Shown here piece by piece: positions 12,752 to 48,291 of a DNA stretch of 51,374 bases. The notes below the pieces were generated by a model. That model made no database searches. It was not told the origin of the DNA and saw only the letters and a list, made by a program, of their open reading frames with translations. Made by a program: the position numbers and the translations under genes. Source of the stretch: Chitinophaga pinensis (lineage in GTDB: Bacteria; Bacteroidota; Bacteroidia; Chitinophagales; Chitinophagaceae); contig CAMAXV010000018.1 in the NCBI GenBank assembly GCA_945862385.1, positions 1 through 51,374 on the forward strand, read 5' to 3'. How positions within the stretch are numbered: the stretch's first letter is position 1; every line of letters begins with the position of its first letter.

Positions 12752-12758
12752 TCCAGCC

Positions 12759-28358: not shown

Positions 28359-28365
28359 TCAGGGC
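28352..28365. other. 14-bp perfect palindrome over two abutting stop codons
   Basis: GCCCTGA-TCAGGGC is centred exactly between the TGA of the FAD oxidoreductase (28356-28358) and the TGA of the convergent esterase (28359-28361 on the minus strand). A short T-run (28370-28374) follows on the plus strand. It could act as a weak bidirectional terminator, since no other terminator space exists, but part of the symmetry follows from two facing TGA codons. Confidence 0.5.
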
Positions 28366-29651: not shown

Positions 29652-29661
29652 ATTAGTTATT

Positions 29662-31185: not shown

Positions 31186-32235
31186 TTAAGGTTTCAATGA
31201 CTTTATCCAGTCGCTGATGAGCTTTACACCCTCAGCATGAATGAGCTTTCTGCTGACCTCTGGCATCATCACGCCAGGATCTGTGGACTGCATGCGGTAT
31301 AAAAGTATGCTTTCGGTTGGTTTTCCCGGATGAATATCATACTGAAGATTTCCAGATCCCCTGCCTGCAGCAATAGGGGTCTTGAAAATACCATAGGCTG
31401 ATTGATCAGTAGTCTTCCAATCCAGGAAAAGTCCGGAAGTCTGTGCAGGACCTGTCTTGTTGTGGCAGTGTGCACAATTGATGTCAAGGTAAGCTTTTGC
31501 CCTTTCATCAATCGATTTGGTTTGATCGCTGTAGTTTACAAATTGAGGAACAGCATTCATGTCTGCAGGTAGGCCGGTCATCATGGCATCCTGCGACCAT
31601 TTTTTAAGCTGGTTTTCTATACCGGCAGCATAATCATGATCGCCATTAAGTTGTCTTGCAGATGGACCGATAGGCGTCATGGCACCATTACTTTCATGAC
31701 AGCTCTTACATTGGTTCATATTGGGAACCGTATATTCAAAGGCAATTTTTTCGCCTTTTTCGTTTAGGTAAGCAACATGGGCAGTTCCACCTGCCACATC
31801 CAGTAAAGCATCAGTCTGTTCTTCATTCCAAATATAGGGAAGTGATTTCCAACCCTTGGCTTCATGGATGAGGATACGTGTCTCTATCAGGCGCCTTCCT
31901 TTCGATGGGTCTTTCTGATCGTTGTAATAGTAAAAAGTTTTCGCAATGGTCGTGCCTACTGGAAATTGAAAGACTGAATCCGGATTGTATTTCACATGTT
32001 CGCCACTGGGCAATTGCACGAAACGCAGTTTGTATGCATAGTCTGAAAACAAGGGTGAATTGAGGGAATAGGGCATCACATTTTTCACCGGTTGCTGATC
32101 ACTGATTTTTCCTTCAAAAAGCCCGTATTCCGATAAACGTTGTTTGTAGGCAAACTGCTCTGCCCCCTTGAAAGACATGGAAAAAATGGTGACCATCAAC
32201 ACCAGCAGCACAATGGCAACATATCCCTTCTTCAT
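31186..32235 (-). CDS. SO2930-family dihaem c-type cytochrome
   Basis: A 349-residue protein with an N-terminal hydrophobic export signal (about 4-22). Two canonical haem motifs are present: CKSCH in TVPNMNQCKSCHESNGAMTP and CAHCH in AYLDINCAHCHNKTGPAQT. The pieces YGLFEGKISDQQP and NVMPYSLNSPLFSDYAYKLR near the N-terminus match the pattern of the TIGR03806/SO2930 family. That family is known to sit next to the parallel beta-helix family TIGR03805, and here that neighbour is the gene immediately upstream (9 bp). It probably carries electrons in the periplasm. Confidence 0.88.
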   Translation of the reverse strand: MKKGYVAIVLLVLMVTIFSMSFKGAEQFAYKQRLSEYGLFEGKISDQQPVKNVMPYSLNSPLFSDYAYKLRFVQLPSGEHVKYNPDSVFQFPVGTTIAKTFYYYNDQKDPSKGRRLIETRILIHEAKGWKSLPYIWNEEQTDALLDVAGGTAHVAYLNEKGEKIAFEYTVPNMNQCKSCHESNGAMTPIGPSARQLNGDHDYAAGIENQLKKWSQDAMMTGLPADMNAVPQFVNYSDQTKSIDERAKAYLDINCAHCHNKTGPAQTSGLFLDWKTTDQSAYGIFKTPIAAGRGSGNLQYDIHPGKPTESILLYRMQSTDPGVMMPEVSRKLIHAEGVKLISDWIKSLKP

Positions 32236-32244
32236 CTTGATGAC

Positions 32245-33453
32245 TTATTGTTTATTGTTCAATACAATGGGTGCAAGGCTACAGTTGAATGGTGTAACAT
32301 CGCGTGAAATATTCTTGAAATCATTTTCTGCATCAATGTTGGCAAAGCTCTGGTTCTTGTTGTTCTGGATGCAGATCATGTATTCTGCCTTCACATTTCC
32401 TGAAGCATCGCGGTATTTTGGATTGATGATTCCGTCATAAACGATATGGGGAACATTGCGTCCGAATTTCAATTTGAAATGATAGATTTGTGCAAAACGC
32501 CCTTCCAAGGGCACTTTTCGCTTCTTTCTTTCAAAAGTATTATCATGCACTGAAATGGCACTGGGGTATGGATTGTACTGTTTGTCTTTGAACTTGTTTT
32601 CAGTGATATAATAACTGATGATACCCACACCCATGGTGCTGTTGTTGATGATTTCATTGTTGAACACCTCAACATGGTTGGCGGCAAGCAGCATGACCCC
32701 TGTTCCTTTTGGCACCTTGGCCACAATGTTTCCTTTCGGGGCAAAATTGGAAAGATTATTCTCTTTGATGATGTTGTTGTGTACGGAAACATATCCACCC
32801 TGCTTTTGGATTAGACCAGGCAAATCAAATACCAGAATTCCTCCTGTATTGCCTGTTGCAAGGTTATTGTACACCTCGGCATAAAGGGAATTTTCAATCT
32901 CAATTCCAGCAACATTGTTGTAGGCTGTGCAGTTTTTCACCACAATGTATTTAGACTGTCCCACATAGATTCCGGCATCTGAAGCACCAATGGCAATACA
33001 GCTGTCGATCAGCACATTTTCGCATTGCACAGGATAGAGTGCATATCCCCCATTTTTTTCATCGGGCTTGCCCGTCCATTCTGCCTTGACACGCCTGAAA
33101 GTGATTCCCTTCACGTGCATGGTCTTGATCAGGTCTCCTTTGGAATCCTGAACGGTCATGTCTTCCAGTACAATGTTTTCACAGTTGCTGACCCTTATCC
33201 CCTCTGCTCCTGAAGTCTGATCTTTAAAAGTAAGGATGGTTTTGTCGATGCCTTTTCCTCTGACTACAATATTTTTTTTGCCGTCCAAAGAGAGGCTTTT
33301 TGTAATACTGAAAACACCTCCATCCAGGTTAACTACATCTCCATCTTCTGCCAGAATCAGATCGGTCTGAATTTTTTTCTCAATATCAGCCTGGGCATTC
33401 AAATCAATTGCAATGCACAGTGCCGTTGAAATCAACCAAAATATTTTCTTCAT
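32245..33453 (-). CDS. Parallel beta-helix repeat protein (TIGR03805-like)
   Basis: A 402-residue protein with a signal peptide (about 1-20). From about residue 60 it shows right-handed beta-helix rungs, for example GIRVSNCENIVLEDMTVQDS, ENVLIDSCIAIGASDAGIYV, YIVVKNCTAYNNVAGIEIEN and AEVYNNLATGNTGGILVFDL. The fold occurs in lyases and glycosidases. No GH28 catalytic Asp set is apparent, so a catalytic role is not claimed. It is paired with the dihaem cytochrome downstream, a conserved pairing in other bacteria. Confidence 0.85.
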   Translation of the reverse strand: MKKIFWLISTALCIAIDLNAQADIEKKIQTDLILAEDGDVVNLDGGVFSITKSLSLDGKKNIVVRGKGIDKTILTFKDQTSGAEGIRVSNCENIVLEDMTVQDSKGDLIKTMHVKGITFRRVKAEWTGKPDEKNGGYALYPVQCENVLIDSCIAIGASDAGIYVGQSKYIVVKNCTAYNNVAGIEIENSLYAEVYNNLATGNTGGILVFDLPGLIQKQGGYVSVHNNIIKENNLSNFAPKGNIVAKVPKGTGVMLLAANHVEVFNNEIINNSTMGVGIISYYITENKFKDKQYNPYPSAISVHDNTFERKKRKVPLEGRFAQIYHFKLKFGRNVPHIVYDGIINPKYRDASGNVKAEYMICIQNNKNQSFANIDAENDFKNISRDVTPFNCSLAPIVLNNKQ

Positions 33454-33459
33454 GATTTG

Positions 33460-35742
33460 CTAATTGAGTGATGGTTTTGAAATGGAATATGGAAATGAAG
33501 AAATTGCTGTTCCACGTTTTTTGTTTGGAACAGAAATCATGTTAAACTTAAGCACTCCGCCTTTTCTAATGTCAAAATGATTAATATAATTTTTGTTGTA
33601 AGGGGTTCCATTCAACAAAGCGCTTCCAATATAAACGTTGTCGGGTGCATTGTTGGGAGATTCAATGATAAACTTCTTGCCTTTCCCGAGATCAATGGTA
33701 ACCTTTTTAAACAAAGATGAACCGAAAATATATTCATTTGAACCCGGACAAACCGGATAAAAACCCATAGCGCTGAAAACATACCAAGCGCTAGTCTGTC
33801 CGTTGTCTTCGTCACCACAATAACCATCAGGTGTAGGTTTATAAAACCTATCCATCACTTTGCGCGTATAATACTGCGATTTCCAGGGTGCGCCGCAATA
33901 ATTATAAATGTATAACATGTGCTGGATGGGCTGGTTTCCGTGCGCATATTGCCCCATATTCATCACTTGCATTTCAACCATTTCATGGATAGTCTTTTTA
34001 TAATATGCGGTATCAAAAACAGGTGGCAATACAAATACACTGTCAAGCATCCTTTCAAGTTCCTTGCGCCCACCCATCATTCCCGCCAATCCTTCAAAAT
34101 CCTGAAAAACACTCCAGCTGTAATGCCAGCTGTTGCCTTCCACAAATTCAAAGCCCCAGCGAAAAGGATTAAACGCTGCCTCAAAAGACCCATCAGCCCT
34201 TCTTCCACGCATCAGGTTATGCCGGGGATCAAACAGGTTTTTATAATTTCCTGCCCTTTTTAAAAATGTATCCACTTCATGAGCAGGCCGCTTCAATGAA
34301 GCAGCAAGCTGCGCTATACAAAAATCGGCATAGGCATACTCAAGTGTCTTCGCAGCGCTCCCTCCATATACATCCACTGGAACATACCCCAGCTTATTAT
34401 AAGCTTCAGCACCATTGCGGCCAAGAGTATTGATGGGTCCTTCACCGCGTGTTCCTTTCAGGATTGCTTCGTACAAAGTTTGAATATCAAAACCCCTTAT
34501 GCCTTTCAGGTATGCGTCTGCAATGACGGAGGATGAATTGTTGCCAATCATACTTTTCTTGTGACCCGGACTGGCCCATTCCGGCAACCAGCCACTTTCC
34601 TTGTAGGTATTTACCAGCCCCTGCATCATCTGGCTGTTGATCTCTGGATATACCAGTGTGAGAAAGGGGAATAGCGACCTGAATGTATCCCAAAATCCTG
34701 TATCAGTAAACATGAAGCCCGATTCAACTTTTCCGTTGAATGGACTGTAATGCACCATCTGCTGACGGGCATCAAATTCATAGAATTTGCGCGGAAACAT
34801 CAGCATCCGGTATAGACAGGAATAAAATGTACGGAGTTGCTCTTCAGAACCTCCCTCCGCTTTTACCTTTATCAATTCCTTTTGCCAGATTTTTTTGGCA
34901 TCTGCACACACCCTGTCGAACCCTTTTCCCTCCATTTCACGATCAAGATTAAGCTGTGCCTGTTCAGGAGAAATAAAAGATGATGCCACACGCAGGTGAA
35001 CCTGCTCTTTGTTTCGGGTGGAAAATCCAACAACCGCCTGGGCATGTCCGCCAGTAAAAGTATTTGCTGAATTTCTTTGTAACTGATCATCAATAGTAAA
35101 GTGAACAGTGAATGATTTATCACATTCAATGACAAAATAGTTCCTGAAATTACCCGGGACTCCGCCCCTGTTCCGGGTTGTATAACCTATTATTTTATTT
35201 GCTGATGGTATGATTTCGATGGATGATCCCCTGTCAAATGCATCAATAAGGATGAAGCTGCTGTCTGCTTCCGGAAAGGTAAGCCGGAATGCTGCAGCCC
35301 GCTCTGTTGGTGCAATTTCTGTCTGCACCTGATCATCTGCCAGGTAAACACTGTAATAATAAGGCCTCGCCTCTTCTGCCTTATGTGAAAAAAAACTGCC
35401 TCGCTGCTCTTCCTGTAAACGCAGTTTCCCTGTCATGGGCATAATTGAAAACTGACCATAGTCTCCTATCCAGGGTGAGGGTTGGTGGGTTTGTTTGAAT
35501 CCGCGAATCCGGTCTGAAGCATACTGATACTGCCATCCGTTTCCGTTAGGTCCGGTTTGTGGTGTCCAGCAGTTCATACCCCAGGGTAATGCAATGGCAG
35601 GGTAGGTATTGCCATTGGAAAAGCCCACGCGTGAATCTGTTCCCATCAGTGGATTCACGAGCTCTTCAGGGTGAAAGGTTTCCTGCGCTGGTAATTGATT
35701 AGCAGTTAACAAAAAAAGTATATACCACAGTCTTTTCATCAT
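33460..35742 (-). CDS. Glycoside hydrolase family 92 (alpha-mannosidase family)
   Basis: The start at 35742 (MMKRLWYILFLLTANQLPAQ, a signal peptide) is chosen because a longer frame would run into the upstream gene. The 760-residue protein shows the GH92 layout: VNPLMGTDSRVGFSNGNTYP at the N-terminal beta-sandwich, DTGFWDTFRSLFPFLTLVYP, GWLPEWASPGHKKSMIGN and YCGDEDNGQTSAWYVFSAMG, then FYPVCPGSNEYIFGSSLFKK. GH92 enzymes are Ca-dependent exo-acting alpha-mannosidases. It is the seventh gene of the run, 10 bp after the Gfo/Idh/MocA gene. A second GH92 is at 48285-50666. Confidence 0.92.
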   Translation of the reverse strand: MMKRLWYILFLLTANQLPAQETFHPEELVNPLMGTDSRVGFSNGNTYPAIALPWGMNCWTPQTGPNGNGWQYQYASDRIRGFKQTHQPSPWIGDYGQFSIMPMTGKLRLQEEQRGSFFSHKAEEARPYYYSVYLADDQVQTEIAPTERAAAFRLTFPEADSSFILIDAFDRGSSIEIIPSANKIIGYTTRNRGGVPGNFRNYFVIECDKSFTVHFTIDDQLQRNSANTFTGGHAQAVVGFSTRNKEQVHLRVASSFISPEQAQLNLDREMEGKGFDRVCADAKKIWQKELIKVKAEGGSEEQLRTFYSCLYRMLMFPRKFYEFDARQQMVHYSPFNGKVESGFMFTDTGFWDTFRSLFPFLTLVYPEINSQMMQGLVNTYKESGWLPEWASPGHKKSMIGNNSSSVIADAYLKGIRGFDIQTLYEAILKGTRGEGPINTLGRNGAEAYNKLGYVPVDVYGGSAAKTLEYAYADFCIAQLAASLKRPAHEVDTFLKRAGNYKNLFDPRHNLMRGRRADGSFEAAFNPFRWGFEFVEGNSWHYSWSVFQDFEGLAGMMGGRKELERMLDSVFVLPPVFDTAYYKKTIHEMVEMQVMNMGQYAHGNQPIQHMLYIYNYCGAPWKSQYYTRKVMDRFYKPTPDGYCGDEDNGQTSAWYVFSAMGFYPVCPGSNEYIFGSSLFKKVTIDLGKGKKFIIESPNNAPDNVYIGSALLNGTPYNKNYINHFDIRKGGVLKFNMISVPNKKRGTAISSFPYSISKPSLN

Positions 35743-35752
35743 ATGGGATTCA

Positions 35753-37072
35753 TTAGGAAGGGAAAACAAAACCATTGTGATAAACCGGCTTGATTAACGC
35801 ATTGGCTGTTTTGTTATCAAAAGTGCCTTTGGCTGCATCCCAGTTAATCTTATCTCCCACCCGATAGGAAATGTTACCCATATGTGCATGCATGGCAACC
35901 AGCGCACCGGCTTGAATGGGACAAGCAAGTTCACTCAGATTGCCGTTTTTAATGACATCAACAAAATTTCTGGCATGGAGATCCAGGCCAACATCCACTT
36001 TTTCACGCAATGCAACTGGCTCAATTTTAATGGCATTCTTACTGCCATCAGGGATAACCTCCCAGTTGTTCCTGCTGACTACCAATGTACCATTTGTACC
36101 GATAAAAGCAATACCATGTCCACGTCCGTATTGGGATCCTGAAACCCCCATATAATGTTCCCAGGTATTGGTGAAATGTCCGTAATCATAAACCACGTGA
36201 AGGTAAGTGGGCGTTTCTCTGGCATCATCGGCAAATATCCTTTTACCACCTGATGCGGAAACCGACTTGGGTTCGCCTGCTTCCATTCCCCACAGCATGA
36301 TATCCATCAAATGCACACCCCAATCGCACATGAGTCCACCTGCATAATCCCAGAACCAACGAAACTCATAATGAAAGCGATTGGCATTAAAAGGTCTGCG
36401 TGCAGCGGGTCCTAGCCACATATTATAATCCACACCTGCTGGAACCTGTCCATCAGGAACTACCGGTAAAGGATCCGTTCCCCTGTACATCCAGGTCTTG
36501 GTGGTAACAATCCTTCCAAGTTTTCCTGATTTCACGTAGTCGATTGCTTCCTTAAAATGCTGCTGACTGCGCTGCCACTGGTTGACCTGAACCACCTTGC
36601 CTGACTTTTCAACTGCACGAACCATGGCTTTGGCTTCAGCTATGGAGTTGGCAACGGGTTTTTCAACATGCACATGTTTGCCGGCCGACAATGCGTCTGT
36701 TAGTTGCAGGCAATGCCAATGATCTGGTGTTGCCACTATAACCGCATCCAGATCTTTTAGCTCGAGCATTTTCCGATAGTCTTTATACAGGTGTGGAACA
36801 TCCACCCCAGCCTTCTTCAAATCCTCTTTTCTTCTTGTCAGCTGCGTCTCATCTACATCACAAAGTGCGATCAGGTTAACATCGCTGCATTTTAGGAATG
36901 CCCGTACATTGTTGAATCCCTGGTTACGCAAACCGATTAAGCCTACATTAACCCTGTCGCTCGGTGCCACTTTTTTTCTGGATGCCGCAGTCAATTCCAA
37001 TGGTAAAGCAGACATGCCAAAACCACCTGTCAGCAGGGCGGTATCTCTGATAAACGTTCTCCTGTTATGCAT
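35753..37072 (-). CDS. Tat-exported Gfo/Idh/MocA-family oxidoreductase
   Basis: A 439-residue protein beginning MHNRRTFIRDTALLTGGFGM, a Tat-type signal. The NAD(P)-binding Rossmann domain follows: VNVGLIGLRNQGFNNVRAFL, IALCDVDETQL, DAVIVATPDHWHCLQLTDAL and HVHVEKPVANSIAEAKAMV with the EKP motif. The C-terminal domain holds YNMWLGPAARRPFNANRFHY and WFWDYAGGLMCDWGVHLMDI, common in exported members. The family oxidises or reduces sugars, and the exported forms are thought to hold their cofactor tightly. It lies between GH105 and GH92 genes (20 and 10-bp gaps), suggesting a redox step on a released sugar. Confidence 0.9.
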   Translation of the reverse strand: MHNRRTFIRDTALLTGGFGMSALPLELTAASRKKVAPSDRVNVGLIGLRNQGFNNVRAFLKCSDVNLIALCDVDETQLTRRKEDLKKAGVDVPHLYKDYRKMLELKDLDAVIVATPDHWHCLQLTDALSAGKHVHVEKPVANSIAEAKAMVRAVEKSGKVVQVNQWQRSQQHFKEAIDYVKSGKLGRIVTTKTWMYRGTDPLPVVPDGQVPAGVDYNMWLGPAARRPFNANRFHYEFRWFWDYAGGLMCDWGVHLMDIMLWGMEAGEPKSVSASGGKRIFADDARETPTYLHVVYDYGHFTNTWEHYMGVSGSQYGRGHGIAFIGTNGTLVVSRNNWEVIPDGSKNAIKIEPVALREKVDVGLDLHARNFVDVIKNGNLSELACPIQAGALVAMHAHMGNISYRVGDKINWDAAKGTFDNKTANALIKPVYHNGFVFPS

Positions 37073-37092: not shown

Positions 37093-38256
37093 TTATTTAT
37101 TAAACATATAGCTTTCAAAGGCCAGCCCGAACATGATCATTGAACCATACCCAAATCCGGTGCCTTCAGTTATTTTTCTTCCAAGATAATAGGCCTGATC
37201 ACCCACACAGGTTCCTCCGGAAACGCGTGTTGGTACCAGGTATGCTGTACCTTCCGGATTACGCATACTCAGCCTGCGCAGACCAGTATAAGCTTTTTCA
37301 GCCATGGGCAGATATGTTTTGGGCTGCACTACATGCAACTGAATTCCTTTGATAATGGCATAGGCAAACATGGCCGTACTGGAACTCTCCAGAAAATTTC
37401 CCCTGAGCGTAGGCAAGGTGACCAGCTGGTACCAGTGACCGGATTCCTGATTCTGAAAGGGTTCGATAGCTTTGATAAAATGCAGCAATGCTTTTCCCAG
37501 CGGTTTACTGAAACGAGAGCGTGGACCAACAGCTTCCAGTGCATCGGCGAGTGCCATGCCTACCCAGCCATTCCCCCTTGCCCAAATCTGGTCATTGCGG
37601 TGCGTTTGCTTATCTGGCCAGTTTTTCACACTGCATCCATCATCATAAAAAACACTGTCGGCATCCCAGCCATGAACCCATAGTCCTGACGATTTATCCA
37701 ATAATTTTTCATGGTGACTGTTGAACTGCTCGAGAAAATATGCTATGTATTTTTCATCTCCTGTCAGTTTATACATCTCAACCAAAAACATACTCAGCAT
37801 ATAAACTGTATCATCCCAGAGTTCCAGTGTTTCTGCACGGTGCGATACACCGCCATTAAATGTTCTTGGAATCTGCAGGTAATCAGCCAGTATACTTTCT
37901 GCCCATCGCTTAAATGAACTGTCTCCCGTTGTTCTGGCAAGGAAAACAATACCATGCGCCGAGGCCACAGCATTGGGGTGTCTGCCATTGGCAACCTGAC
38001 GGGAAACCTCCATCGCTTTTTGGATATAGCTGGCATACAGTGCCGGATTATTACCCCGCTTTTCTGCATGCAATTGCTTCAGCGCATGCAAAAAAGTTGC
38101 CTGGCCCCAGTCCCACTTATACTTCTCAGCCGGCATAAAAACCTCGCGGCCATGCTTTTCCAGTGAATCAACCCATGTTTTGGGTTGCGCATGAATTCCA
38201 GTGGCATGAAGCAGTAAAGAACCTACAATAATTAAATAATATTTTTTTATACTCAC
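37093..38256 (-). CDS. GH105-type unsaturated rhamnogalacturonyl hydrolase
   Basis: A 387-residue protein with a signal peptide (about 5-23) and a GTG start that overlaps the stop of the 1,933-residue gene as GTGA. The (alpha/alpha)6 barrel motifs are KWDWGQATFLHALKQLH (48 on), TLELWDDTVYMLSMFLVEMY with Asp148/149, DQIWARGNGWVGMALADAL (about 223-241) and SGTCVGDQAYYLG-like pieces near the end. The pattern fits GH105/GH88 unsaturated uronyl hydrolases acting on lyase products such as unsaturated rhamnogalacturonan or ulvan oligosaccharides. Substrate choice between them is not settled by sequence alone. It shares a clan-level fold with the GH88 at 4763-6022. Confidence 0.87.
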   Translation of the reverse strand: MSIKKYYLIIVGSLLLHATGIHAQPKTWVDSLEKHGREVFMPAEKYKWDWGQATFLHALKQLHAEKRGNNPALYASYIQKAMEVSRQVANGRHPNAVASAHGIVFLARTTGDSSFKRWAESILADYLQIPRTFNGGVSHRAETLELWDDTVYMLSMFLVEMYKLTGDEKYIAYFLEQFNSHHEKLLDKSSGLWVHGWDADSVFYDDGCSVKNWPDKQTHRNDQIWARGNGWVGMALADALEAVGPRSRFSKPLGKALLHFIKAIEPFQNQESGHWYQLVTLPTLRGNFLESSSTAMFAYAIIKGIQLHVVQPKTYLPMAEKAYTGLRRLSMRNPEGTAYLVPTRVSGGTCVGDQAYYLGRKITEGTGFGYGSMIMFGLAFESYMFNK

Positions 38257-41200
38257 CTGTATATGTATTTAAATTTTTTATCTATTTCTTTGCCGTCTAC
38301 CTGAAAAAGAAAATCTTCGGGCATCCGGAAAGGATTGTAATAAGCCAATCGCAGCTTTTTGTTCAGGTCAGCTTTGACTCCGAGCTTTCCTGCCTGCGTC
38401 TGAACAGCCACATCGATTATGCCATTGGTTAAAGTCAGATCAACCGCACTTCCCAATACCTGCCGGCGGAATGCTGCAAAATCCTGATCACCCTTTATAC
38501 CTTCCTGCACTTTCCACCACATAGCAATACCCAATTTTTTCCCTTCCGGATGTTGCAATGTTAGTCGCAAAGCTGCATTGTGTTTTAATTCAAAGTCTTC
38601 GCGGTTCGACGCAAACCTGAAACCGTCATTGTGCAGGGCAAACCGGTTCCCCGCGGCATTGTCCCACAACACACGAATAGCAATGGCTACATCTTCAAAA
38701 AGGGCAAAGAAGGTATTGGTGCTGTTCATCGCAACATGCTGACCAACAGCAGGCTTATTAATCCTGCTGTCACCCATCCACAGTTCGTCAAAATAATCTG
38801 GTAAAATAATGGTAGAATTCAGATAATCCCTGATAGCATTATGATCCTTATCGCCAGACACCAGCATAACAAATTCATTCCTGTTTTGTACAACCTGCTG
38901 GAAAGGCATCAGATGCCTGGTCTTATTCCAACCGCCATTGGCAGGATAACCGCGGGGCATAAGGTGTTTCATCTTTTCTCCCATGCCTGTTGAACCCCAG
39001 GTTCCATAATGGTCATCCCGACCCTCAGGAACATACACGATATTGGGCATGGCGGGGATGCGTGGACTATGAAGGTACACGATGAAAGACTTATCGTCCG
39101 GACTGTAATATTGATTAGATGAGCCGATGGAAAAATTTTTGCCATGGTAGTCGAATGCATAGGTGTGGGCAAGACTATCCCAGCGCTGCAAAATGAATTT
39201 ATCGTTCCTCCTCATGAGTTTCATTTGCTCCTTATCCAGTCCTCTTTCTTTCAAAATAGAAAAACAAACCTGGTGAAACAGCTGATCATTCCTGTTGTCG
39301 CCGCCTAAGAGGGGGTTCATGTAACGTGCTTCGAGTAAATCTTTTCCAAATACCCTGTTGTAATCCCTGCTGTGTGCTCCAGCCAGGTACCCACCCTGTT
39401 CATTGTAATGTGCCGCAATATCTGTGAGAAAAAACTGCAGTGCATCCTTTGCTTTTTGTCTGATAGCCACATCAGATGTAAACCTGCTTAGCAATAGCAA
39501 TGATTCGAGGTCAACACCTGAATAAGTTGGACTATCATACTCTCTGTTACCATAGTTGGCTACATGTTTCAACCATATATCAAAGGCCTTCCGGCCTTCT
39601 TCAACCACAGCTGGAAGCTGATAGGTTTCACCCAATGCAACCAGGTTCCATACACGCATCAGGTAAATGTTGGTATAGGAAATCCTGACGGGTTGTCGCC
39701 TCACCCCAACAAGTGCTTTCATAAACAGGTCATCAAGTGCTGCACGTGAAGCGTTTGTGAGTCTGTCATTGAAAAGGATTTTGATCAGTATGCCGTACTG
39801 CACACAAAACTCTACATTGTTACCATCACCTACATCGCCGCCTGTCTCCGTCCATCCCCAGTACATATTACCAAATGATGGCTTTGTGCTGTCTGTTATG
39901 ACCCTGGTTTTGACCTGTTCAATGGTTCGGATCAATTGCTCATCAGTAAACGATCTTGTATCCAATGCATCGAGCAAAAAAAGGAAACAATCCCTGACAC
40001 TCGTCGTAGGAATATTTTTTTGAAGTCCCTGCCACTGACTGTTTAGAATTTCTTTTCTTCGGGCAGGACTAGCCACCTGAGGTATACTGAAATTTTCTTT
40101 GGGTGATCTGGTCGGATAAATCCGTAAAAGCTTCACTCCATGATGAGGGATTGAAGCTGAAATCATTCCAGTATGATGTTCCACATCCTGCTGGATCCAA
40201 GCGTCCCTGATCCGCCAGGTTCCGTTCAATCCAATCCGGGAAAGATCCAGCGAAAAATGTCTTGAAACTTCATTGCCCCACCTGAAATAGGATGCCGGTG
40301 TCTTTCCATATTCGGCGGTATTGAATAGTCCTAACCCATACGAACCATCCTCCAGCTGCTTCAGCCAAACCTGGATACCATGTTCTTCGAGTACCATGCG
40401 GCCACCCTTACCCAGCGGATCCTGGTTAATGGCAATAACTTCAGCATTGGTCAGTAGATTCAGTGTAAAGGAGTCCAGTGACTCAATCGGACAACCGATG
40501 AGCATGGGAGCAGCCAACAGTGCGTAGAGGCTCACATGACTGTATTGCTCATCTGCAGTTAGCCGGGTAGGGTGCAACCCTGCACCAGTGCTCACATTGC
40601 CAACTATCATCATATCCGGATCAGGCCAGTGACCCGGACCGGTATAGGGATACCACTTGTCGAGTGAAAAGGTTGTTGTACAGAGACTGTTCCAGCTGTC
40701 GCGGATATCCGGACCAGTCCTGAACATCTGCGTGGTACGAACCCAGTCAGCTGCTTTTTCAAATGGTGCAGAATTGGAAATACTCAACGGGATATCCCTT
40801 CCCGAATACCGGAGGGCTTTGGCCATTCTTTCTGTGGAATTCACATCAATACGCCAGTCGTATTTCAGGAAATCTATACCCCAGGTAGCCATCTGTTTGG
40901 CATCAGCTTCTTCAAACCTGTTGGCGGCAATCCGCATAAAGGGTTGTCTGTTTTTGCTGATTAACGCGTGTGTTTCACCGCCTGAAGGGTAATCAGAAGA
41001 GCCACCGGGATAACCTGCATAAGTTGAGATATAAGGTGTGGAATACAAACCGACTTTTAATCCCATAGCATGTATTGTATCAACCATCGCTTTAAAATCC
41101 CTGAATTTTTCATTGGGTTGCAAAGCAAAATCCTTTCCTGAACGCACACCCTGCCAGGTATCGTCAATATTGATATAGCTCCAGCCAAAATTTGATAATC

Positions 41201-44054
41201 CGGAGCTGACCATGGCACGCGCAGATGCCAGTACTTTTTCCCTGTCGATCTGATGCGCCCAGCTGTTCCAGCCATTCCATCCAATTGGAGGTGTAAGTGC
41301 AATGGTATCTCCTATCCTGATATGCAGCTCCTGTTTAACGCTTCCATGCGTATTTGATGCCGTCAGTTTTACCCTGTAATGTCCACTTTTCGCAACATTA
41401 CCGGTAATAATCCCGGTCTGCCTGTCAAGCTTCAACCCTGCTGGCAATCCTGATGCCTCAAACTGCATGGGTCTCTTTCCGGATGCAGCAATGGCAAACA
41501 GAAAAGGATGACCGGGTCTTGCACCATAAACGGTTGCACTGTTGATCCGTGGAGTATTTGCGGCGACTGGCGTCTGCATATATTTTTCAATTTCATTAGG
41601 CACCTGAAGAGGCATTGCGCCTTCCTCCATGACGAGCATGGCATCAGCCCAATTACCATATGTCCGTTTGTTACTGATTCCTTTCACCTCATCAGTCACC
41701 AACAAACCCAGCCTTTGTATGCCTTGCAGATCGATGTCAATAATTTCTGCAGGATCGCCTACAGACATGGGCTTGCTTTGATACATTACTTTCCCGTCTC
41801 CCAGCACATAAAAACGGATAGGAATTGCTTTGTTGCCCATATCGTCTGCACCCACCTTTGCATGCATTCTTAATCCCTTGCCGTTTAGCTGGAACGGCAG
41901 CACACTAACCGACTGTAATCCAATGCCGCGATTGAAATAGGTTCCGGCAATCCGCATGGAATCTTTCTGATAATTTGTTCCGGTTGCAACCGGACGAATG
42001 CCTTCAGAAAAAGACTGGATGGGAAGTTTATCGAGGAAAACAGTATCAGCAGGGATGGAGCGTGTCAGCTTCAATAGTTTGACCCCGTGATGAGGAATCA
42101 GCAAATCCGTGGTTCCCGAAGGCACATTCAAATCTTTTTGTTGCCAGATATCACGCAAATTCCAGCGGCCTTGCAATCCCAATCTGAGTGGATCTAATCT
42201 GAAATTGGCAGCGGGCTCATCACCCCACCGGAAATAGGTCTGTGGATCTTTTCCATACGCTGCTGTATTGAAGAGTCCAACTGCATAATTGCCATCAGCC
42301 AAGGGTTTCAGCCATACCTGAACACCATTTTCCTCAGCCACCAGGCGGGCAGATTCTCCACCAGGATCCTGATCAATGGCGATAACCTCGTCATTCGTAA
42401 GTAAGTTGAGTGTAAATAGGTCGAGCTGATCAATAGGACAGCCAACAAGCATGGGGGCACTCAGTAAGGCAAAGAGACTGACATGACTGTATTGTTCATC
42501 CGGTGTGAGTCTGGATGGATGCATTTCAGAACCGGTAGTAACATTGCCGAGGATCATCATATCCGGATCATTCCAATGACCCGGCTTGCTGAAAGGCGCC
42601 CATTTATCCAGTGTAAACGTTGTTTTATACAATCCATGCCAGCTGTCACGGATATCCGGACCAGTACGCCATAAGTTAGCCAGCTTTTGCCATTCATCTG
42701 CCAATGTAAAAGGGGCTGAGTTGGAAATACTGTATATAATATCACGATCAACAGTTTCCAGGGCTTCTGACATGCGTCTGGCAGACTCCTTTTCAATCTT
42801 CCAATCGTACTTAAGGTAATCAACTCCCCAGGCTGCAAACTGCCTGGCATCAGCTTTTTCAAAGCTGTAAGGCCCACGGTATCGGTAGGCCCGTTTGTTG
42901 GCCACAATTGAATCTGGAAATGCTCCATCAGGGAAAATAGAAGAGCCCCCAGGATATCCGGCATAGCTGGTGATCATAGGAGTAGAATAAACCCCTAATT
43001 TCAATCCGAGTCGGTGTATGGAATCAATCATGGATTTAAACTCCGGAAATTTAGCATTTGCCTGAAGTGCATGATCAGGACCTGACCGAACACCCTGCCA
43101 GGCATCGTCAATATTGACGTATGTCCACCCATAATTCTTTAAGCCTTTTTCCACCATGGCATTTGCTGAAGCCAATACTTTTTCTCTGTCTATGTTCCTT
43201 GACCATGAATTCCAGCCATTCCAGCCCATAGGCGGGGTCAGGGCTATGGTTTCACCAATACGTATTGTCAATTCCCTGTGACTGCTGCCATGTACATTGG
43301 TGGCAGTAATCCAAACCTTGAAATCCTTTTTCTCTTTTACTACACCTGTAATCTGACCGCTTAGAGAATCCAGCACCAATCCTGCCGGTAAACCTTCTGC
43401 ATAAAATTTCACAGGTTTTTGTCCCGATGCTACAACCGTATACAAAAACGGATTACCTGGTCTGGCACCGAAAACAGCAGGACCATTTATTTTGGGTATC
43501 AATGAAGGTTTGGGAGTGAGCAGATAGCGGTCTCCATTATTGGGGATATGTCCTGGCTGGCTGTTGCCTTTCATCACAAACCTTGCATCGGCCCAATTCG
43601 TAAAGACCCTGTTCTGGTTTTCGTCATTTACGAGTACCAGTAATCCTAAACGCCTGACACCACGTAAATCCACTTTCACTTCCTTTGCCTTATCGCCCCG
43701 GCGCATATCACCACTTTCAAATAAAATTTTCCGGTCGCCCAGCACATAAAACCGATGCAGGATTGTCTGACTGCCTTCATCGTCAACACCCACATGCGCC
43801 CGAAAAGAAATTGCATTGCCATCCAGTTGAAAGGCCAGGATACTGGTTGACGCTACACCGATTCCGCGTGAATATTTTTTACCCGCAATAGCTAAGGGAC
43901 CTCCACCCTGGTTGGTTTTGGAAACAACGGCAGGAATGCCCTGAGAAAAAGACTTGATGGGCATTTCATCAAGCCATAGCGCTGTTTTTTTTTGAGCATT
44001 TACGTTTAGCGAAAAGCAAACAACAAAAAAAAAGGAAAGGGAATGCTTGAGCAT
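38253..44054 (-). CDS. Giant modular enzyme: two NPCBM-Ig-GH27 units plus unknown C-terminal module
   Basis: A 1,933-residue secreted protein (signal peptide 1-20). Unit A has an NPCBM-like domain (about 25-165), an Ig-like domain (185-268) and a GH27 domain (270-665) starting TPPMGWNGWNSW. Its nucleophile is Asp417 in YLKYDW and its acid/base is Asp467 in GPDIRDSW. Unit B repeats the set: NPCBM (672-812), Ig-like (835-915) and GH27 (919-1312) with Asp1066 and Asp1116. So both GH27 sites look intact. GH27 enzymes are mostly alpha-galactosidases or alpha-N-acetylgalactosaminidases. The last 600 residues (1330-1933) look like a helical toroid (1380-1640) followed by beta-sheets, without a family I recognise. 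It lies 4 bp after the sulfatase-GH28 gene. Confidence 0.9.
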   Translation of the reverse strand: MLKHSLSFFFVVCFSLNVNAQKKTALWLDEMPIKSFSQGIPAVVSKTNQGGGPLAIAGKKYSRGIGVASTSILAFQLDGNAISFRAHVGVDDEGSQTILHRFYVLGDRKILFESGDMRRGDKAKEVKVDLRGVRRLGLLVLVNDENQNRVFTNWADARFVMKGNSQPGHIPNNGDRYLLTPKPSLIPKINGPAVFGARPGNPFLYTVVASGQKPVKFYAEGLPAGLVLDSLSGQITGVVKEKKDFKVWITATNVHGSSHRELTIRIGETIALTPPMGWNGWNSWSRNIDREKVLASANAMVEKGLKNYGWTYVNIDDAWQGVRSGPDHALQANAKFPEFKSMIDSIHRLGLKLGVYSTPMITSYAGYPGGSSIFPDGAFPDSIVANKRAYRYRGPYSFEKADARQFAAWGVDYLKYDWKIEKESARRMSEALETVDRDIIYSISNSAPFTLADEWQKLANLWRTGPDIRDSWHGLYKTTFTLDKWAPFSKPGHWNDPDMMILGNVTTGSEMHPSRLTPDEQYSHVSLFALLSAPMLVGCPIDQLDLFTLNLLTNDEVIAIDQDPGGESARLVAEENGVQVWLKPLADGNYAVGLFNTAAYGKDPQTYFRWGDEPAANFRLDPLRLGLQGRWNLRDIWQQKDLNVPSGTTDLLIPHHGVKLLKLTRSIPADTVFLDKLPIQSFSEGIRPVATGTNYQKDSMRIAGTYFNRGIGLQSVSVLPFQLNGKGLRMHAKVGADDMGNKAIPIRFYVLGDGKVMYQSKPMSVGDPAEIIDIDLQGIQRLGLLVTDEVKGISNKRTYGNWADAMLVMEEGAMPLQVPNEIEKYMQTPVAANTPRINSATVYGARPGHPFLFAIAASGKRPMQFEASGLPAGLKLDRQTGIITGNVAKSGHYRVKLTASNTHGSVKQELHIRIGDTIALTPPIGWNGWNSWAHQIDREKVLASARAMVSSGLSNFGWSYINIDDTWQGVRSGKDFALQPNEKFRDFKAMVDTIHAMGLKVGLYSTPYISTYAGYPGGSSDYPSGGETHALISKNRQPFMRIAANRFEEADAKQMATWGIDFLKYDWRIDVNSTERMAKALRYSGRDIPLSISNSAPFEKAADWVRTTQMFRTGPDIRDSWNSLCTTTFSLDKWYPYTGPGHWPDPDMMIVGNVSTGAGLHPTRLTADEQYSHVSLYALLAAPMLIGCPIESLDSFTLNLLTNAEVIAINQDPLGKGGRMVLEEHGIQVWLKQLEDGSYGLGLFNTAEYGKTPASYFRWGNEVSRHFSLDLSRIGLNGTWRIRDAWIQQDVEHHTGMISASIPHHGVKLLRIYPTRSPKENFSIPQVASPARRKEILNSQWQGLQKNIPTTSVRDCFLFLLDALDTRSFTDEQLIRTIEQVKTRVITDSTKPSFGNMYWGWTETGGDVGDGNNVEFCVQYGILIKILFNDRLTNASRAALDDLFMKALVGVRRQPVRISYTNIYLMRVWNLVALGETYQLPAVVEEGRKAFDIWLKHVANYGNREYDSPTYSGVDLESLLLLSRFTSDVAIRQKAKDALQFFLTDIAAHYNEQGGYLAGAHSRDYNRVFGKDLLEARYMNPLLGGDNRNDQLFHQVCFSILKERGLDKEQMKLMRRNDKFILQRWDSLAHTYAFDYHGKNFSIGSSNQYYSPDDKSFIVYLHSPRIPAMPNIVYVPEGRDDHYGTWGSTGMGEKMKHLMPRGYPANGGWNKTRHLMPFQQVVQNRNEFVMLVSGDKDHNAIRDYLNSTIILPDYFDELWMGDSRINKPAVGQHVAMNSTNTFFALFEDVAIAIRVLWDNAAGNRFALHNDGFRFASNREDFELKHNAALRLTLQHPEGKKLGIAMWWKVQEGIKGDQDFAAFRRQVLGSAVDLTLTNGIIDVAVQTQAGKLGVKADLNKKLRLAYYNPFRMPEDFLFQVDGKEIDKKFKYIYR
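40119..43997 (-). repeat. Internal tandem duplication of a GH27 unit
   Basis: Two consecutive units of about 645 codons, 42060-43997 and 40119-42059, encode the same domain order. Long stretches are near-identical at protein level, for example IDREKVLASA, GVYSTP/GLYSTP, YAGYPGGSS, NSAPF, FRTGPDIRDSW/WRTGPDIRDSW and DEQYSHVSL. The DNA has diverged, so the duplication is not recent. Confidence 0.85.
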
Positions 44055-44058
44055 GTTA

Positions 44059-47000
44059 TTATTTGTCTACTGTTTTGATTGCTTCTGTCAGGTGAAAAGG
44101 TGAACGGATCCGGTCAACCACGATGTCTTTTGTTTGACGCATCCACAATACTGGTGCCTGCAAGGAAGTGGGGATGTCCAAATTGCTGATACTGATCTTT
44201 TGAACATCATCCATCACAACAGGAACCCTGAAGTCATCCTTTTTATATTTCAGTGTCACATTTTTCATGCTGATACCTTCCACATGACGCAGGTACATCC
44301 CCCAAGTGGGTAGTTCACCAAACATGCTGAATTCAGGGTAATTCGCTTCAGCTTCGGTAATGATATGCATTGAATCAACGGGAATATGGGTTCTCTTTTT
44401 TTGTGCACCTCCCTCGTAAATAATTTCTATGTCTTCCAACTGTACATTTTTAATCCTGTGCCCGGGTAAACCCGTAATTGAAGAAGGAAAAACATTGTGC
44501 GGGTAAAGCACCACATTGGTTTCTTTCGTTGAATGATTATGCGGCGAGATGCTGAAAATTCCACTTTCAGGAATATGAAAAGATGCAGGGTATTTCAGCA
44601 GGGGGCCTTCCAGTTCATATCCTTTATCCGGTTTGCCGGCAGGTACTTCCACTTTCACATCACGGATCAGGATGTTGCTCACACTTGAGTACACTTCATC
44701 CTTATTCCGTTTGCCCAATTTGATGAAAATAGCATTACCGGTATTTTTGGCACGTACGCCTGAAATATTTACATTTTCGATAATACCTCCGTCCACTGCT
44801 TCCAGGGCAATAGCAGAACGATAGGTATCATAAACGGTGATGTTGCGGACGGTAATATTTTTGAATCCGCCATGGGATGCCGTTCCCATTTTAAATGCGC
44901 TTGCACTGGAACGCATGATACAATTTTCAACCAGGATATTGTCGCAGAAACCATTACGGGATTCAGACTTCAGACAAACCGCATCATCTGCGGTATTGAA
45001 ACTGGAATTCATCACTTTAACATAGCTGCAGTTGTCGAGGTCTATCCCGTCATTGTTCCAGTAAGCCGTACTTTCCACTTTGATGCTGTCAAATTCCATG
45101 TTCCGGCTATTTTGCAACTTCAACACCCAGGATGTGGCGTCTTTGAAAGTCACACTTCTTACATGCACGTTGGTGCAGTTATTCATCCACAAGAGATGCC
45201 CTCTGTTTTTTTCAGTTGGCCTTTTTGTTTTCCATTCAGGATCTGAAATCAATCCTGCCTCCAGGTTTTTGAAAATATCTTTCATCAACTCCCGTCCATT
45301 GCCATCTATGGTTCCGGAACCGGTAATCCAGACATTATTCAGATCCTTTCCTTTGAGAAGGCTGATTGGAGACGCATCGCCATAATCTTTCCGAAAAGGA
45401 GACCCCAGCAATACCGCTCCTTTTTGCAGGTGAATATCTACATTAGACCGCAGGGTTAAGGGAGCTATGAGGTATCTGCCTTCCGGTATCACGACTCTTC
45501 CGCCTCCGTTGGCAGAAACCTGTTCAATGGCATCCTGAATTATCCGTGTATTGTTTGTTACCCCATCACCTTTAGCCCCCAAAGTGGTGACAACAACGTC
45601 CTTGACTTTTGATACTTTCCGAACGCCAACCCGAGCAGCCCAAACTTCATAGTCGTTTTGTAGTTGTGTTACCAATGCAGGTTTTTTTGCAGACAAGTCA
45701 TTTACTTCTGTAGGATCATCTTTCAGGTTATACAGGGCCCAGCTTTCATCTTCCAGTTCCTGAACCAATTTCCAGTCTCCCCACCTCACAGCCCTGTTTC
45801 CTTCATGCTCCCAGAAGATTTTACGTTCTGGATTTTTTTTGCCTGTCCATAAGTGAGACAAACTTTTACCTGGCACATCAAGTGGATCAGCACCGGCCAG
45901 TTCAAGGCTTGTGGGGAGGAGATCCATCACATGTCCGTAGCCATCGTGAAAACCTTTTCCGGGTTTTATGCCTGCTGGCCACTGAATAATGAAAGAGGTG
46001 TTCATACCTCCCTCATGCATGTAATGTTTGTATTTTTTGAAAGGTGTACTCGAAACATTGGCCCAAGGCTCGCCATAGATGGCATAAGAACCTTTTTCTC
46101 CAATTTTAGTGGAGGGGTCATTGAGTAATTTTGTGTTAACAGTTTCTGCACAAGCCCCATTGTCTGATAAGAAAATAATTACTGTATTGTCATACTGACC
46201 AGTCTGCTTAAGCTGTTCAACAAGTCTGCCGATATTCTGGTCCATTCTGTCAATCATGGCAGCATACACTGCCATCTTTCTGATCCAGTCAGCCTTGTCT
46301 TCAACAGAGTCCCAGCTTGGTATATGCCCGGGCTTATCGGTAAGTTTATACCTGTTGTCAATCAGTCCGATTGCTTTCATGCGCTGATACCTTTCAGACC
46401 TGATTTTGTCCCAACCTTTGGCATAAATTTTTTCATACTTCACGATATCCTCCTCCAATGCGTGAAGTGGAAAATGCGGTGCTGTATAGGCCAGGTAAAG
46501 AAAAAACGGATCATCTTTTCTGTTTTTCTGATGCTCATCAAGAAAAGCCATGGCCTGATCTGTAAAAGCATCCGTCATGTAATGACCATTTGAAGGAATG
46601 GTATATTCTTCATCATTCAACACAAAAAACCGCTTGGCCCTTTCCTGTGGTGTAATCTCATAAAAACTCGACGCCCCGGATATTAAGCCATAGTATCTGT
46701 CAAACCCTCTTTTTCTTGGCCAGTGCTCCTTCCTTTCGCCTACATGCCATTTACCAGACATATACGTTCCATATCCTGCCTTTTTCAGCTCTTCTGCAAT
46801 GGTGGGATATTTGTCATCCAGAAAGCCCTGGTATGAACCAGGCTTATACTTGGCATTTGCAAGGGTTACCATCTGACCAATGCCAACCTGATGCGGATAC
46901 TGCCCTGTTAGTAATGATGCTCTTGTAGGACAGCATCTTGAATTATTATAGAAACTTCTAAGCTTTAAGCCATTAGCTGCCAGCTTGTCAAGATTCGGTG

Positions 47001-47205
47001 TCTTTATTTCACTCCCATAGCATCCGAGGTCTGAATATCCCATATCATCAGCCATGATGTAAACAAAATTGGGCCTTGCAGCTTTAGGGGACTTGTTGAC
47101 GGGATTGTTGAAAGAAGTAAACAACATCCAGCCTGCAAGCAGTTTTATGATTTTTGCAGAAAAAGTCAAGATGCCGTTATGGAAATTGGAACCGGCTTTA
47201 TACAT
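44059..47205 (-). CDS. Sulfatase - GH28 (polygalacturonase-type) fusion
   Basis: A 1,048-residue protein with an N-terminal hydrophobic segment (about 16-32). A sulfatase domain spans about 44-525: PNFVYIMADDMGYSDLGCYG, site CCPTR at 91-95 (Cys91), MSGKWHVGERKEHW and IIFLSDNGACAET. A beta-helix GH28-like domain spans about 536-1040: TLGAKGDGVTNNTRIIQDAI, GTIDGNGREL, WNNDGIDLDNC (Asp718), NTADDAVCLKS (Asp739, Asp740), GTASHGGFKNI (His777) and YRSAIALEA (Arg795). The GH28 catalytic Asp trio and His are thus present. The fusion would remove a sulfate and cleave a galacturonic-type linkage. It follows LacI by 17 bp. Confidence 0.9.
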   Translation of the reverse strand: MYKAGSNFHNGILTFSAKIIKLLAGWMLFTSFNNPVNKSPKAARPNFVYIMADDMGYSDLGCYGSEIKTPNLDKLAANGLKLRSFYNNSRCCPTRASLLTGQYPHQVGIGQMVTLANAKYKPGSYQGFLDDKYPTIAEELKKAGYGTYMSGKWHVGERKEHWPRKRGFDRYYGLISGASSFYEITPQERAKRFFVLNDEEYTIPSNGHYMTDAFTDQAMAFLDEHQKNRKDDPFFLYLAYTAPHFPLHALEEDIVKYEKIYAKGWDKIRSERYQRMKAIGLIDNRYKLTDKPGHIPSWDSVEDKADWIRKMAVYAAMIDRMDQNIGRLVEQLKQTGQYDNTVIIFLSDNGACAETVNTKLLNDPSTKIGEKGSYAIYGEPWANVSSTPFKKYKHYMHEGGMNTSFIIQWPAGIKPGKGFHDGYGHVMDLLPTSLELAGADPLDVPGKSLSHLWTGKKNPERKIFWEHEGNRAVRWGDWKLVQELEDESWALYNLKDDPTEVNDLSAKKPALVTQLQNDYEVWAARVGVRKVSKVKDVVVTTLGAKGDGVTNNTRIIQDAIEQVSANGGGRVVIPEGRYLIAPLTLRSNVDIHLQKGAVLLGSPFRKDYGDASPISLLKGKDLNNVWITGSGTIDGNGRELMKDIFKNLEAGLISDPEWKTKRPTEKNRGHLLWMNNCTNVHVRSVTFKDATSWVLKLQNSRNMEFDSIKVESTAYWNNDGIDLDNCSYVKVMNSSFNTADDAVCLKSESRNGFCDNILVENCIMRSSASAFKMGTASHGGFKNITVRNITVYDTYRSAIALEAVDGGIIENVNISGVRAKNTGNAIFIKLGKRNKDEVYSSVSNILIRDVKVEVPAGKPDKGYELEGPLLKYPASFHIPESGIFSISPHNHSTKETNVVLYPHNVFPSSITGLPGHRIKNVQLEDIEIIYEGGAQKKRTHIPVDSMHIITEAEANYPEFSMFGELPTWGMYLRHVEGISMKNVTLKYKKDDFRVPVVMDDVQKISISNLDIPTSLQAPVLWMRQTKDIVVDRIRSPFHLTEAIKTVDK

Positions 47206-48278: not shown

Positions 48279-48291
48279 CCGCTGTCAGCGG
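48279..48291. promoter_or_regulatory. Candidate LacI operator or short hairpin (13-bp palindrome)
   Basis: CCGCTG-T-CAGCGG lies over the GH92 stop codon (48285-48287) and about 25 bp before the LacI start at 48254. LacI operators are usually palindromes with a central CG pair; this one is centred on a single T, so the assignment is weak. It could also be a small intercistronic hairpin. Confidence 0.25.

What the first reader, a model, noticed from the sequence alone, without database searches (positions are those of the whole stretch)
38253..40065. Unrecognised 600-residue C-terminal module, possible new lyase-type family
Residues about 1330-1933 look like an alpha/alpha toroid (for example DSPTYSGVDLESLLLLSRF) followed by beta-sheets (QHPEGKKLGIAMWWK). 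This layout is shared by several polysaccharide lyase families. The operon and the GH88 have unsaturated-uronyl hydrolases but no recognisable lyase, so a lyase is missing and this module is the best candidate.
Basis: inference. Interest (0 to 1): 0.75.

Follow-up and report, generated by a model that had tools for sequence, protein, structure and literature searches.

The report
Probable new polysaccharide lyase family
The last third of a giant bacterial protein is predicted to fold like enzymes that cut acidic sugar chains by elimination, yet it matched none of the sequence-family models searched, so it is a good candidate for a new, still untested family of sugar-cutting enzymes.

Summary
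The minus-strand gene 38253-44054 (1933 aa) is two NPCBM/Ig/GH27 repeats followed by a ~610-residue module with no Pfam, NCBIfam, PHROG or meaningful PDB sequence match. Relatives (57-74% identity over A3) are mostly stand-alone ~640-aa Bacteroidota proteins, so this is a real family. A confident AlphaFold2 model (pLDDT 87, pTM 0.89) is helices, then mainly strands. Of 37 PDB fold matches at E<=0.001, 34 are uronic-glycan lyases, one is dermatan sulfate epimerase and two look unrelated. An Asn (N1462) and a Tyr (Y1511) are invariant and spaced roughly as in those lyases; an Arg (R1563) sits as in PL8. The gene overlaps a GH105-type gene by 4 bp, is fused to GH105 in two other genomes, and has one within 10 kb in all 10 relatives with full flanks. 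Best reading: a periplasmic uronate lyase feeding GH105, in a family Pfam does not model. Against: TM-scores below 0.5, no conserved His at the canonical places, low model confidence beside R1563, no known substrate, and a second lyase-like protein (C2) near it in most relatives, though not found in this genome. CAZy could not be searched.

The parts
38256..40091 (-). the module: (alpha/alpha) toroid + beta-sheet domain, residues 1322-1933 of the 1933-aa protein
   Evidence: No Pfam/NCBIfam/PHROG match; AF2 model pLDDT 87.2, pTM 0.89; Foldseek to uronic-glycan lyases
39669..39671 (-). Asn1462 (N141 of the model), proposed carboxylate neutraliser
   Evidence: 34 of 34 rows of A3 with a letter there; an Asn 50-61 residues before the Tyr also in 22 distant proteins
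39522..39524 (-). Tyr1511 (Y190 of the model, motif E-Y-D-S-P-T-Y), proposed catalytic base/acid
   Evidence: 34 of 34 rows with a letter there; motif present in all 22 distant proteins examined
39360..39374 (-). His1561, Arg1563, Tyr1565 (HSRDY motif); Arg proposed as counterpart of a PL8 active-site Arg
   Evidence: 34 of 34 rows with a letter there; an Arg 49-52 after the Tyr in all 22 distant proteins (pattern match, no superposition); model residues 243-245 have pLDDT below 50
38913..38915 (-). His1714 (H393 of the model), invariant histidine of the beta domain, alternative acid/base
   Evidence: 32 of 32 rows with a letter there, but 203 residues after the Tyr rather than the 130-166 of the PL12/15/17/21/35/39 entries of Table 4 in PMC12088678
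40092..42074 (-). second NPCBM-Ig-GH27 repeat (borders approximate)
   Evidence: Pfam NPCBM, He_PIG, Melibiase_2, Melibiase_C; 55.9% identical to the first
42075..44054 (-). signal-peptide-like N terminus (read by eye) and first NPCBM-Ig-GH27 repeat (borders approximate)
   Evidence: Pfam
37093..38256 (-). GH105-type (Pfam Glyco_hydro_88) gene overlapping the module gene by 4 bp
   Evidence: Pfam 1.8e-58; nearest solved relative YteR, 4.6e-26, with the Asp that is Asn in chain 2gh4 conserved
44059..47205 (-). sulfatase + GH28 fusion
   Evidence: Pfam
47223..48254 (-). LacI-type regulator
   Evidence: Pfam
48285..50666 (-). GH92
   Evidence: Pfam
50775..51374 (-). SusD, cut by the contig end: a polysaccharide utilisation locus
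   Evidence: Pfam SusD_RagB
35753..37072 (-). Gfo/Idh oxidoreductase; best NCBIfam model glycoside 3-dehydrogenase, below its cut-off
33460..35775 (-). GH92
   Evidence: Pfam
31186..33453 (-). parallel beta-helix protein (TIGR03805) and SO2930-family diheme cytochrome (TIGR03806), two genes
   Evidence: NCBIfam over cut-off
28359..31176 (-). acetyl xylan esterase-type esterase and sulfatase, two genes
   Evidence: Pfam

Best explanation
The module is a periplasmic polysaccharide (uronate) lyase of the toroid-plus-beta-sheet superfamily, in a sequence family of its own. SHOWN: a defined family; a confident predicted fold whose best matches are uronic-glycan lyases; invariant Asn, Tyr and Arg at roughly the expected spacing; tight linkage and fusion with GH105. 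INFERRED: Asn1462 neutralises the carboxylate of a uronic acid at subsite +1, Tyr1511 takes the C5 proton and protonates the leaving oxygen at C4 (as recalled for PL8-type enzymes), Arg1563 helps place both, and the chain is cut by beta-elimination. This leaves a 4,5-unsaturated uronate at the new non-reducing end, which the neighbouring GH105-type enzyme removes. In this genome the lyase is fused behind two GH27 repeats that, by family knowledge, could trim alpha-galactosyl or beta-arabinopyranosyl side chains from the same glycan. Endo or exo action and the substrate are not known; the neighbours point to a branched, sulfated or esterified plant or algal glycan that contains uronate.
For: Foldseek: 34 of 37 PDB matches at E<=0.001 are uronic-glycan lyases, best 1.4e-9 to a PL17 lyase, on a model of pLDDT 87.2. 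Asn, Tyr and Arg are invariant, and the pattern recurs in 22 of 22 distant proteins. The Asn-to-Tyr gap is 49, against 53-63 for the Asn/Asp entries of Table 4 of PMC12088678. The GH105-type gene overlaps by 4 bp here. A GH105-type gene is in 22 of 33 module loci, and in 10 of 10 with at least 9.8 kb on both sides. Module-GH105 frames in two other genomes. The GH105-type protein is YteR-like. No C2 match in the window's genome.
Against: Query-normalised TM-scores of the 37 matches are 0.18-0.48 with rmsd of 9.2 A or more, so the match is to a superfamily. No invariant His lies 130-166 residues after the Tyr (as in PL12/15/17/21/35/39) or 7-9 before it (as in PL8/PL23). Model residues 243-245, next to the proposed Arg, and 330-332 have pLDDT below 50, and no superposition on a known lyase could be made. 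No activity or substrate is known. C2, lyase-like by eye, is in 21 of 33 module loci and could be what feeds GH105 there; 2 of the 16 loci with at least 5 kb on both sides (L045, L048) show no GH105 gene. The only NCBIfam hit of the GH105-type gene is a beta-galactosidase model, far below its cut-off.
Confidence: 0.68

Rival explanations
1. The module is a glycoside hydrolase on a toroid scaffold, with Asp/Glu rather than Asn/Tyr catalysis, and C2 is the lyase of the locus.
For: Many conserved acids (for example D89, E184, D186, E254); toroid hydrolases are common (recalled); C2 accompanies GH105 in 19 of the 22 GH105-bearing module loci.
Against: No glycoside hydrolase is among the 37 matches at E<=0.001. 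The first is rank 40, E 4.7e-3: 5noa, whose Foldseek title says polysaccharide lyase but whose molecule is named family 88 glycosyl hydrolase; the next is a cellulase at rank 43. The Asn/Tyr pattern recurs in distant proteins. C2 has no match in the window's genome or in two others where the module is fused (one of them, G003, is only 60% complete).
Confidence: 0.14
2. The module is a uronate C5-epimerase that uses the same fold and proton-abstraction chemistry without elimination.
For: Human dermatan sulfate epimerase 1 is match 18, E 1.4e-7.
Against: It sits in a degradative locus and is fused to GH105 in relatives, an enzyme type that acts on unsaturated uronates (passage of PMC8406133) rather than on epimerised ones.
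Confidence: 0.06
3. The module is a lyase, but of another elimination: for example it acts on the 3-keto sugars made by the neighbouring glycoside 3-dehydrogenase-like enzyme.
For: A Gfo/Idh gene near glycoside 3-dehydrogenase is the second gene downstream in the window; Gfo/Idh genes are in 11 of 34 loci and 3-keto-disaccharide hydrolase-type proteins in 8 of 34.
Against: Those genes are in a minority of loci, whereas GH105 is in 10 of 10 with full flanks; the fold class is one of uronate enzymes.
Confidence: 0.07
4. The module is a non-catalytic or decayed lyase that serves as a binding or scaffold part of the fusion.
For: The canonical histidine is not found.
Against: Stand-alone copies are the commonest form (30 of 34 loci), and dozens of polar residues are invariant across the alignment.
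Confidence: 0.05

Closest known systems
PL8 (chondroitin AC / hyaluronate lyases)
   Same: Toroid then beta-sheets; highest TM-scores (0.48); Asn, Tyr and Arg in the same order and at similar spacing (Asn175, Tyr234 and Arg288 named as substrate contacts in passages of PMC8733870)
   Different: No Pfam match at E<=1 and no PDB sequence match above noise; no His 7-9 before the Tyr; rmsd 9.2 A or more
PL17 / PL15 / PL39 / PL12 / PL21 / PL35 lyases
   Same: Best Foldseek E-values (1.4e-9 for a PL17 lyase); toroid plus beta-sheet; Asn-Tyr pair in most (Table 4 of PMC12088678)
   Different: Their beta-domain His 130-166 residues after the Tyr has no invariant counterpart; no Hepar_II_III or Alginate_lyase Pfam match
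Dermatan sulfate epimerase 1
   Same: Same fold class (rank 18)
   Different: Animal epimerase; the present setting is degradative
GH145 lyase with GH105 in arabinogalactan utilisation (passages of PMC8406133; GH145 now PL42 is recalled)
   Same: A lyase makes an unsaturated glucuronate that a GH105 removes
   Different: Another fold (beta-propeller, recalled)

Membership tests
[quoted passage not shown]
   AF2 model and Foldseek; a predicted model, TM-scores below 0.5
toroid + beta-sheet uronate lyase superfamily | Asn (or Asp) neutraliser and Tyr 53-63 residues later | tested here: inconclusive
   Asn and Tyr both invariant; spacing 49 is slightly short, 50-61 in distant proteins. Judged from sequence, not superposition
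toroid + beta-sheet uronate lyase superfamily | catalytic His (beta domain 130-166 after the Tyr, or 7-9 before it) | tested here: not met
   No invariant His at either place; His1561 and His1714 are invariant elsewhere. Judged by spacing; no superposition could be made
toroid + beta-sheet uronate lyase superfamily | beta-elimination activity | not testable with these tools
   Needs an assay
PL8 | sequence match to Lyase_8 models | tested here: not met
   No Pfam family at E<=1
PL12/PL15/PL17/PL21 | sequence match to Hepar_II_III or Alginate_lyase models | tested here: not met
   No Pfam family at E<=1; profile search of PDB sequences gave one chance match at E 1.2
any other CAZy PL family without a Pfam model or solved structure | CAZy assignment | not testable with these tools
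   CAZy/dbCAN not on hand
GH105 (neighbour) | similarity to YteR with its mutated Asp conserved | tested here: met
   4.6e-26 to 1nc5; Asp aligned with the residue that is Asn in 2gh4

The most novel reading that the evidence does not exclude
The module founds a new polysaccharide lyase family, and belongs to a broad unmodelled superfamily (groups G1, C15, C24, C17) of toroid enzymes that share an Asn ... E-x-x-S-x-x-Y ... R signature. The module's own family has dropped the usual active-site histidine and works with Asn, Tyr and Arg, possibly on a polysaccharide for which no lyase is known. In this lineage it has been built into a single exported chain with the debranching GH27 enzymes.
Probability: 0.45. 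Interest if true: 0.7.

Novelty: new variant of a known kind. Interest (0 to 1): 0.55.

Why it matters
Lyases decide which acidic polysaccharides bacteria can open, and each new family makes a class of glycans reachable. Here a family without a Pfam model has a predicted fold, named candidate catalytic residues, a partner enzyme that would report its product, and a conserved locus in Bacteroidota, so a simple 235-nm assay could settle it. The distant relatives suggest several more unmodelled families of the same kind.

Tried and rejected
Single-sequence AlphaFold2 gave a poor model (pLDDT 39.5) and was not used. Profile-profile comparison found group G1 (probability 99.1) and L022 (95.5) but not C15, C24, C17, L027 or C2 (all 0.5 or less). 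C15, C24 and L027 rest on HMMER (C15 8e-9 to 1.4e-6, C24 7e-7 and 7e-4, L027 1.2e-7) and on the motif; C17 is 0.16 or worse in HMMER and rests on the motif alone. The lyase-like look of C2 is by eye only. I considered the parallel beta-helix protein (window 32245-33453) as the missing lyase; it matches TIGR03805 and its neighbour TIGR03806, and its only PDB matches are three weak ones to phage pre-neck appendages, so I rate it unlikely. Viral contigs gave no relative (276 pattern matches, none confirmed). The gene-tree node joining the window to the fused G003/G005 copies has support 0.074, so whether the fusions arose once or more often is open. Neighbours of the distant groups (78 proteins of at least 250 aa from 7 of the 8 regions fetched) did not list Glyco_hydro_88 among the 25 families shown of 69; inconclusive. 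Literature searches gave listings, some capped (20 of 22 and 20 of 90 papers shown); no title listed named this family. That is no proof that it is unpublished.

Full report
WHAT IS THERE. The minus-strand ORF 38253-44054 codes for 1933 residues. Pfam finds two NPCBM / He_PIG / Melibiase_2 / Melibiase_C units, i.e. two GH27 repeats, and nothing in the last ~610 residues; the module alone matches no Pfam, NCBIfam or PHROG family at E<=1. PDB sequence searches give only chance matches, none better than E 0.3: a single-sequence search, a 7-row profile and a 35-row profile. The finding's coordinates and peptides are right.

A REAL FAMILY. Ten of 60 genomes searched, the own genome included, hold a match. 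A pattern scan of the species-genome collection gave 92 candidate stretches, of which 34 encode a relative; these overlap with the genomes and are not an independent set. Titles that name an organism name Bacteroidota (Chitinophagaceae, Prolixibacteraceae, Saprospiraceae and others); nearly all are metagenome assemblies, many with lake or freshwater sample names (my reading of the titles), and one is an isolate, Ginsengibacter hankyongi. In 30 of the 34 loci the relative is a single stand-alone protein aligned over about 600 residues, with 31-71 residues before the aligned part; the seven N termini that I read look like signal peptides. The window's 1933-aa protein is therefore a fusion. In several relatives two GH27 genes lie upstream of the module gene, and the first and second window repeats best match the first and second GH27 gene of one such locus. 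In genome G005 one frame runs GH27-module and another module-GH105, each cut by a contig end. The two ends overlap by 313 bp at 97.1%, so one GH27-module-GH105 gene is possible but not shown. G003 also has a module-GH105 frame.

FOLD. AlphaFold2 on a 40-row alignment (window, 34 close rows, 5 distant paralogues) gave pLDDT 87.2 and pTM 0.89: helices over residues 9-294, then mainly strands over 298-598; residues 243-245, 330-332 and 380-392 are below 50. Foldseek against the PDB gave 907 matches at E<=10, of which the best 50 were shown, and 37 at E<=0.001. Of these 37, 34 are titled as lyases of alginate, heparin/heparan, chondroitin, hyaluronan or other glycosaminoglycans, one is human dermatan sulfate epimerase 1 (rank 18) and two are probably spurious (8rf9, rank 33; complement C3, rank 36). 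Many of the 34 are repeat entries of the same proteins. Families named in the titles or in Table 4 of PMC12088678 are PL8, 12, 15, 17, 21, 23, 33, 35 and 39. Best E is 1.4e-9 (PL17); best TM-score 0.48 (PL8); over the 37 matches query-normalised TM-scores run from 0.18 to 0.48 and rmsd is 9.2 A or more. The match is thus to the superfamily, not to one family. The first glycoside hydrolases come at ranks 40 (5noa, titled a lyase but named family 88 glycosyl hydrolase) and 43. BFVD gave two matches at E<=0.001, both unnamed.

ACTIVE SITE. I read passages of PMC12088678, including Table 4, which lists catalytic residues. There the gap from the neutralising Asn (or Asp) to the Tyr is 53-63; two entries have an Arg or Glu as neutraliser instead. 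In the module Asn141 and Tyr190 (whole-protein 1462, 1511) are 49 apart and present in 34 of 34 rows of A3 with a letter there. All 22 distant proteins examined hold an E-[FYW]-x-S-x-x-Y motif with an Asn 50-61 before it (for L022 several Asn are possible) and an Arg 49-52 after it (pattern matches, not superposition). In PL8 chondroitin AC lyase, Asn175, Tyr234 and Arg288 are named as substrate contacts (passages of PMC8733870), gaps of 59 and 54; their catalytic roles are recalled. The His does not fit: in the table it lies 130-166 after the Tyr, or 7-9 before it in PL8 and PL23, and the module has no invariant His there; its invariant His are at -14, +38, +50, +203 and +324 from the Tyr. 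Either another His does the job, or the family uses Tyr and Arg without one.

CONTEXT. The module gene and the GH105-type gene overlap by 4 bp. That neighbour is closest to YteR among solved structures and keeps the Asp that is Asn in chain 2gh4. Of 33 loci with an annotated module ORF, 22 also show GH105, and 10 of 10 with at least 9.8 kb on both sides do; 14 of 16 with at least 5 kb do, the exceptions being L045 and L048. L061, with only a module fragment, was left out of this count. GH27 is in 28 of 33 and C2 in 21 of 33. These loci are homologous and are not independent events. The own genome has 8 GH88-family matches over the cut-off in 3.07 Mb, so about 0.05 would be expected in 20 kb by chance. 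Other neighbours, each in part of the loci, include GH95 and GH95-like, GH92, GH28, GH106, GH78, GH127, GH43, glucuronyl-esterase-like proteins and sulfatases.

THE RIVAL LYASE. C2 (~574 aa, no Pfam, NCBIfam or PDB match) looks lyase-like by eye. In the same 60 genomes 10 have the module, 9 have C2 and 7 have both. The three with the module alone, G000, G003 (60% complete) and G005, are those in which the module is fused to GH27 or GH105. No C2 match was found in this genome (99.5% complete), so something else must feed GH105 here. Genes matching Hepar_II_III (4) and Alginate_lyase (2) exist on other contigs of the genome. Among the 32 window proteins scanned with Pfam none gave a lyase family, apart from a pectate-lyase-like fold model that overlaps the GH28 part of one protein and the beta-helix protein discussed under rejected ideas.

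WIDER SUPERFAMILY. In 395 genomes of the phylum, 11 (own included) match the 7-row profile: two full-length close ones and nine distant ones. Profile comparison of the module family with the main distant group gave probability 99.1 over 489 columns. Of nine relatives scanned (one close, eight distant) none has a Pfam family above noise.

VERDICT. Works like a toroid uronate lyase: likely. Member of a known PL family: not shown, and rejected for those with Pfam models. Lyase activity, substrate and mode are untested.

Noticed in passing
L053:15442-17163 and 20 other module loci: Family C2 (~574 aa, often directly downstream of the GH105 gene) has no Pfam, NCBIfam or PDB match but looks like a second toroid lyase by eye (NH ... 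DGQYTE-S-Y).
   Followed up: partly
L015-L027, L049:8167-9885, L035:6782-8704, L038:17403-19076: Several further groups without Pfam models share the Asn ... E-x-x-S-x-x-Y ... R pattern with the module; one of them (C15) sits directly upstream of it in three loci (L038, L049, L054).
   Followed up: partly
window 31186-33453: Parallel beta-helix protein next to an SO2930-family diheme cytochrome (TIGR03805/TIGR03806) inside a polysaccharide locus; relatives of the two are in 10 and 8 of 34 module loci.
   Followed up: partly
window 44059-47205 and 20726-22960: Two more fusions: sulfatase + GH28 (separate genes in relatives such as L030 and L036), and GDSL lipase + sulfatase.
   Followed up: no
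L034:2185-4323: Gfo/Idh oxidoreductase fused to GH105 directly upstream of the module gene (Prolixibacteraceae).
   Followed up: no
L028:2638-4974 and 15 other loci: Divergent GH95-like family C3 of ~780 aa, directly after the module gene in 10 of 31 cases counted.
   Followed up: no
L053:2095-4260 and 7 other loci: Family C10 (~720 aa) without Pfam or NCBIfam match in the same loci.
   Followed up: no
window 14596-16131 and 12588-13928: Two proteins (511 and 446 aa) without Pfam or NCBIfam match.
   Followed up: no
window 9773-11734: M56-type peptidase with a TonB plug-like stretch at its C terminus.
   Followed up: no
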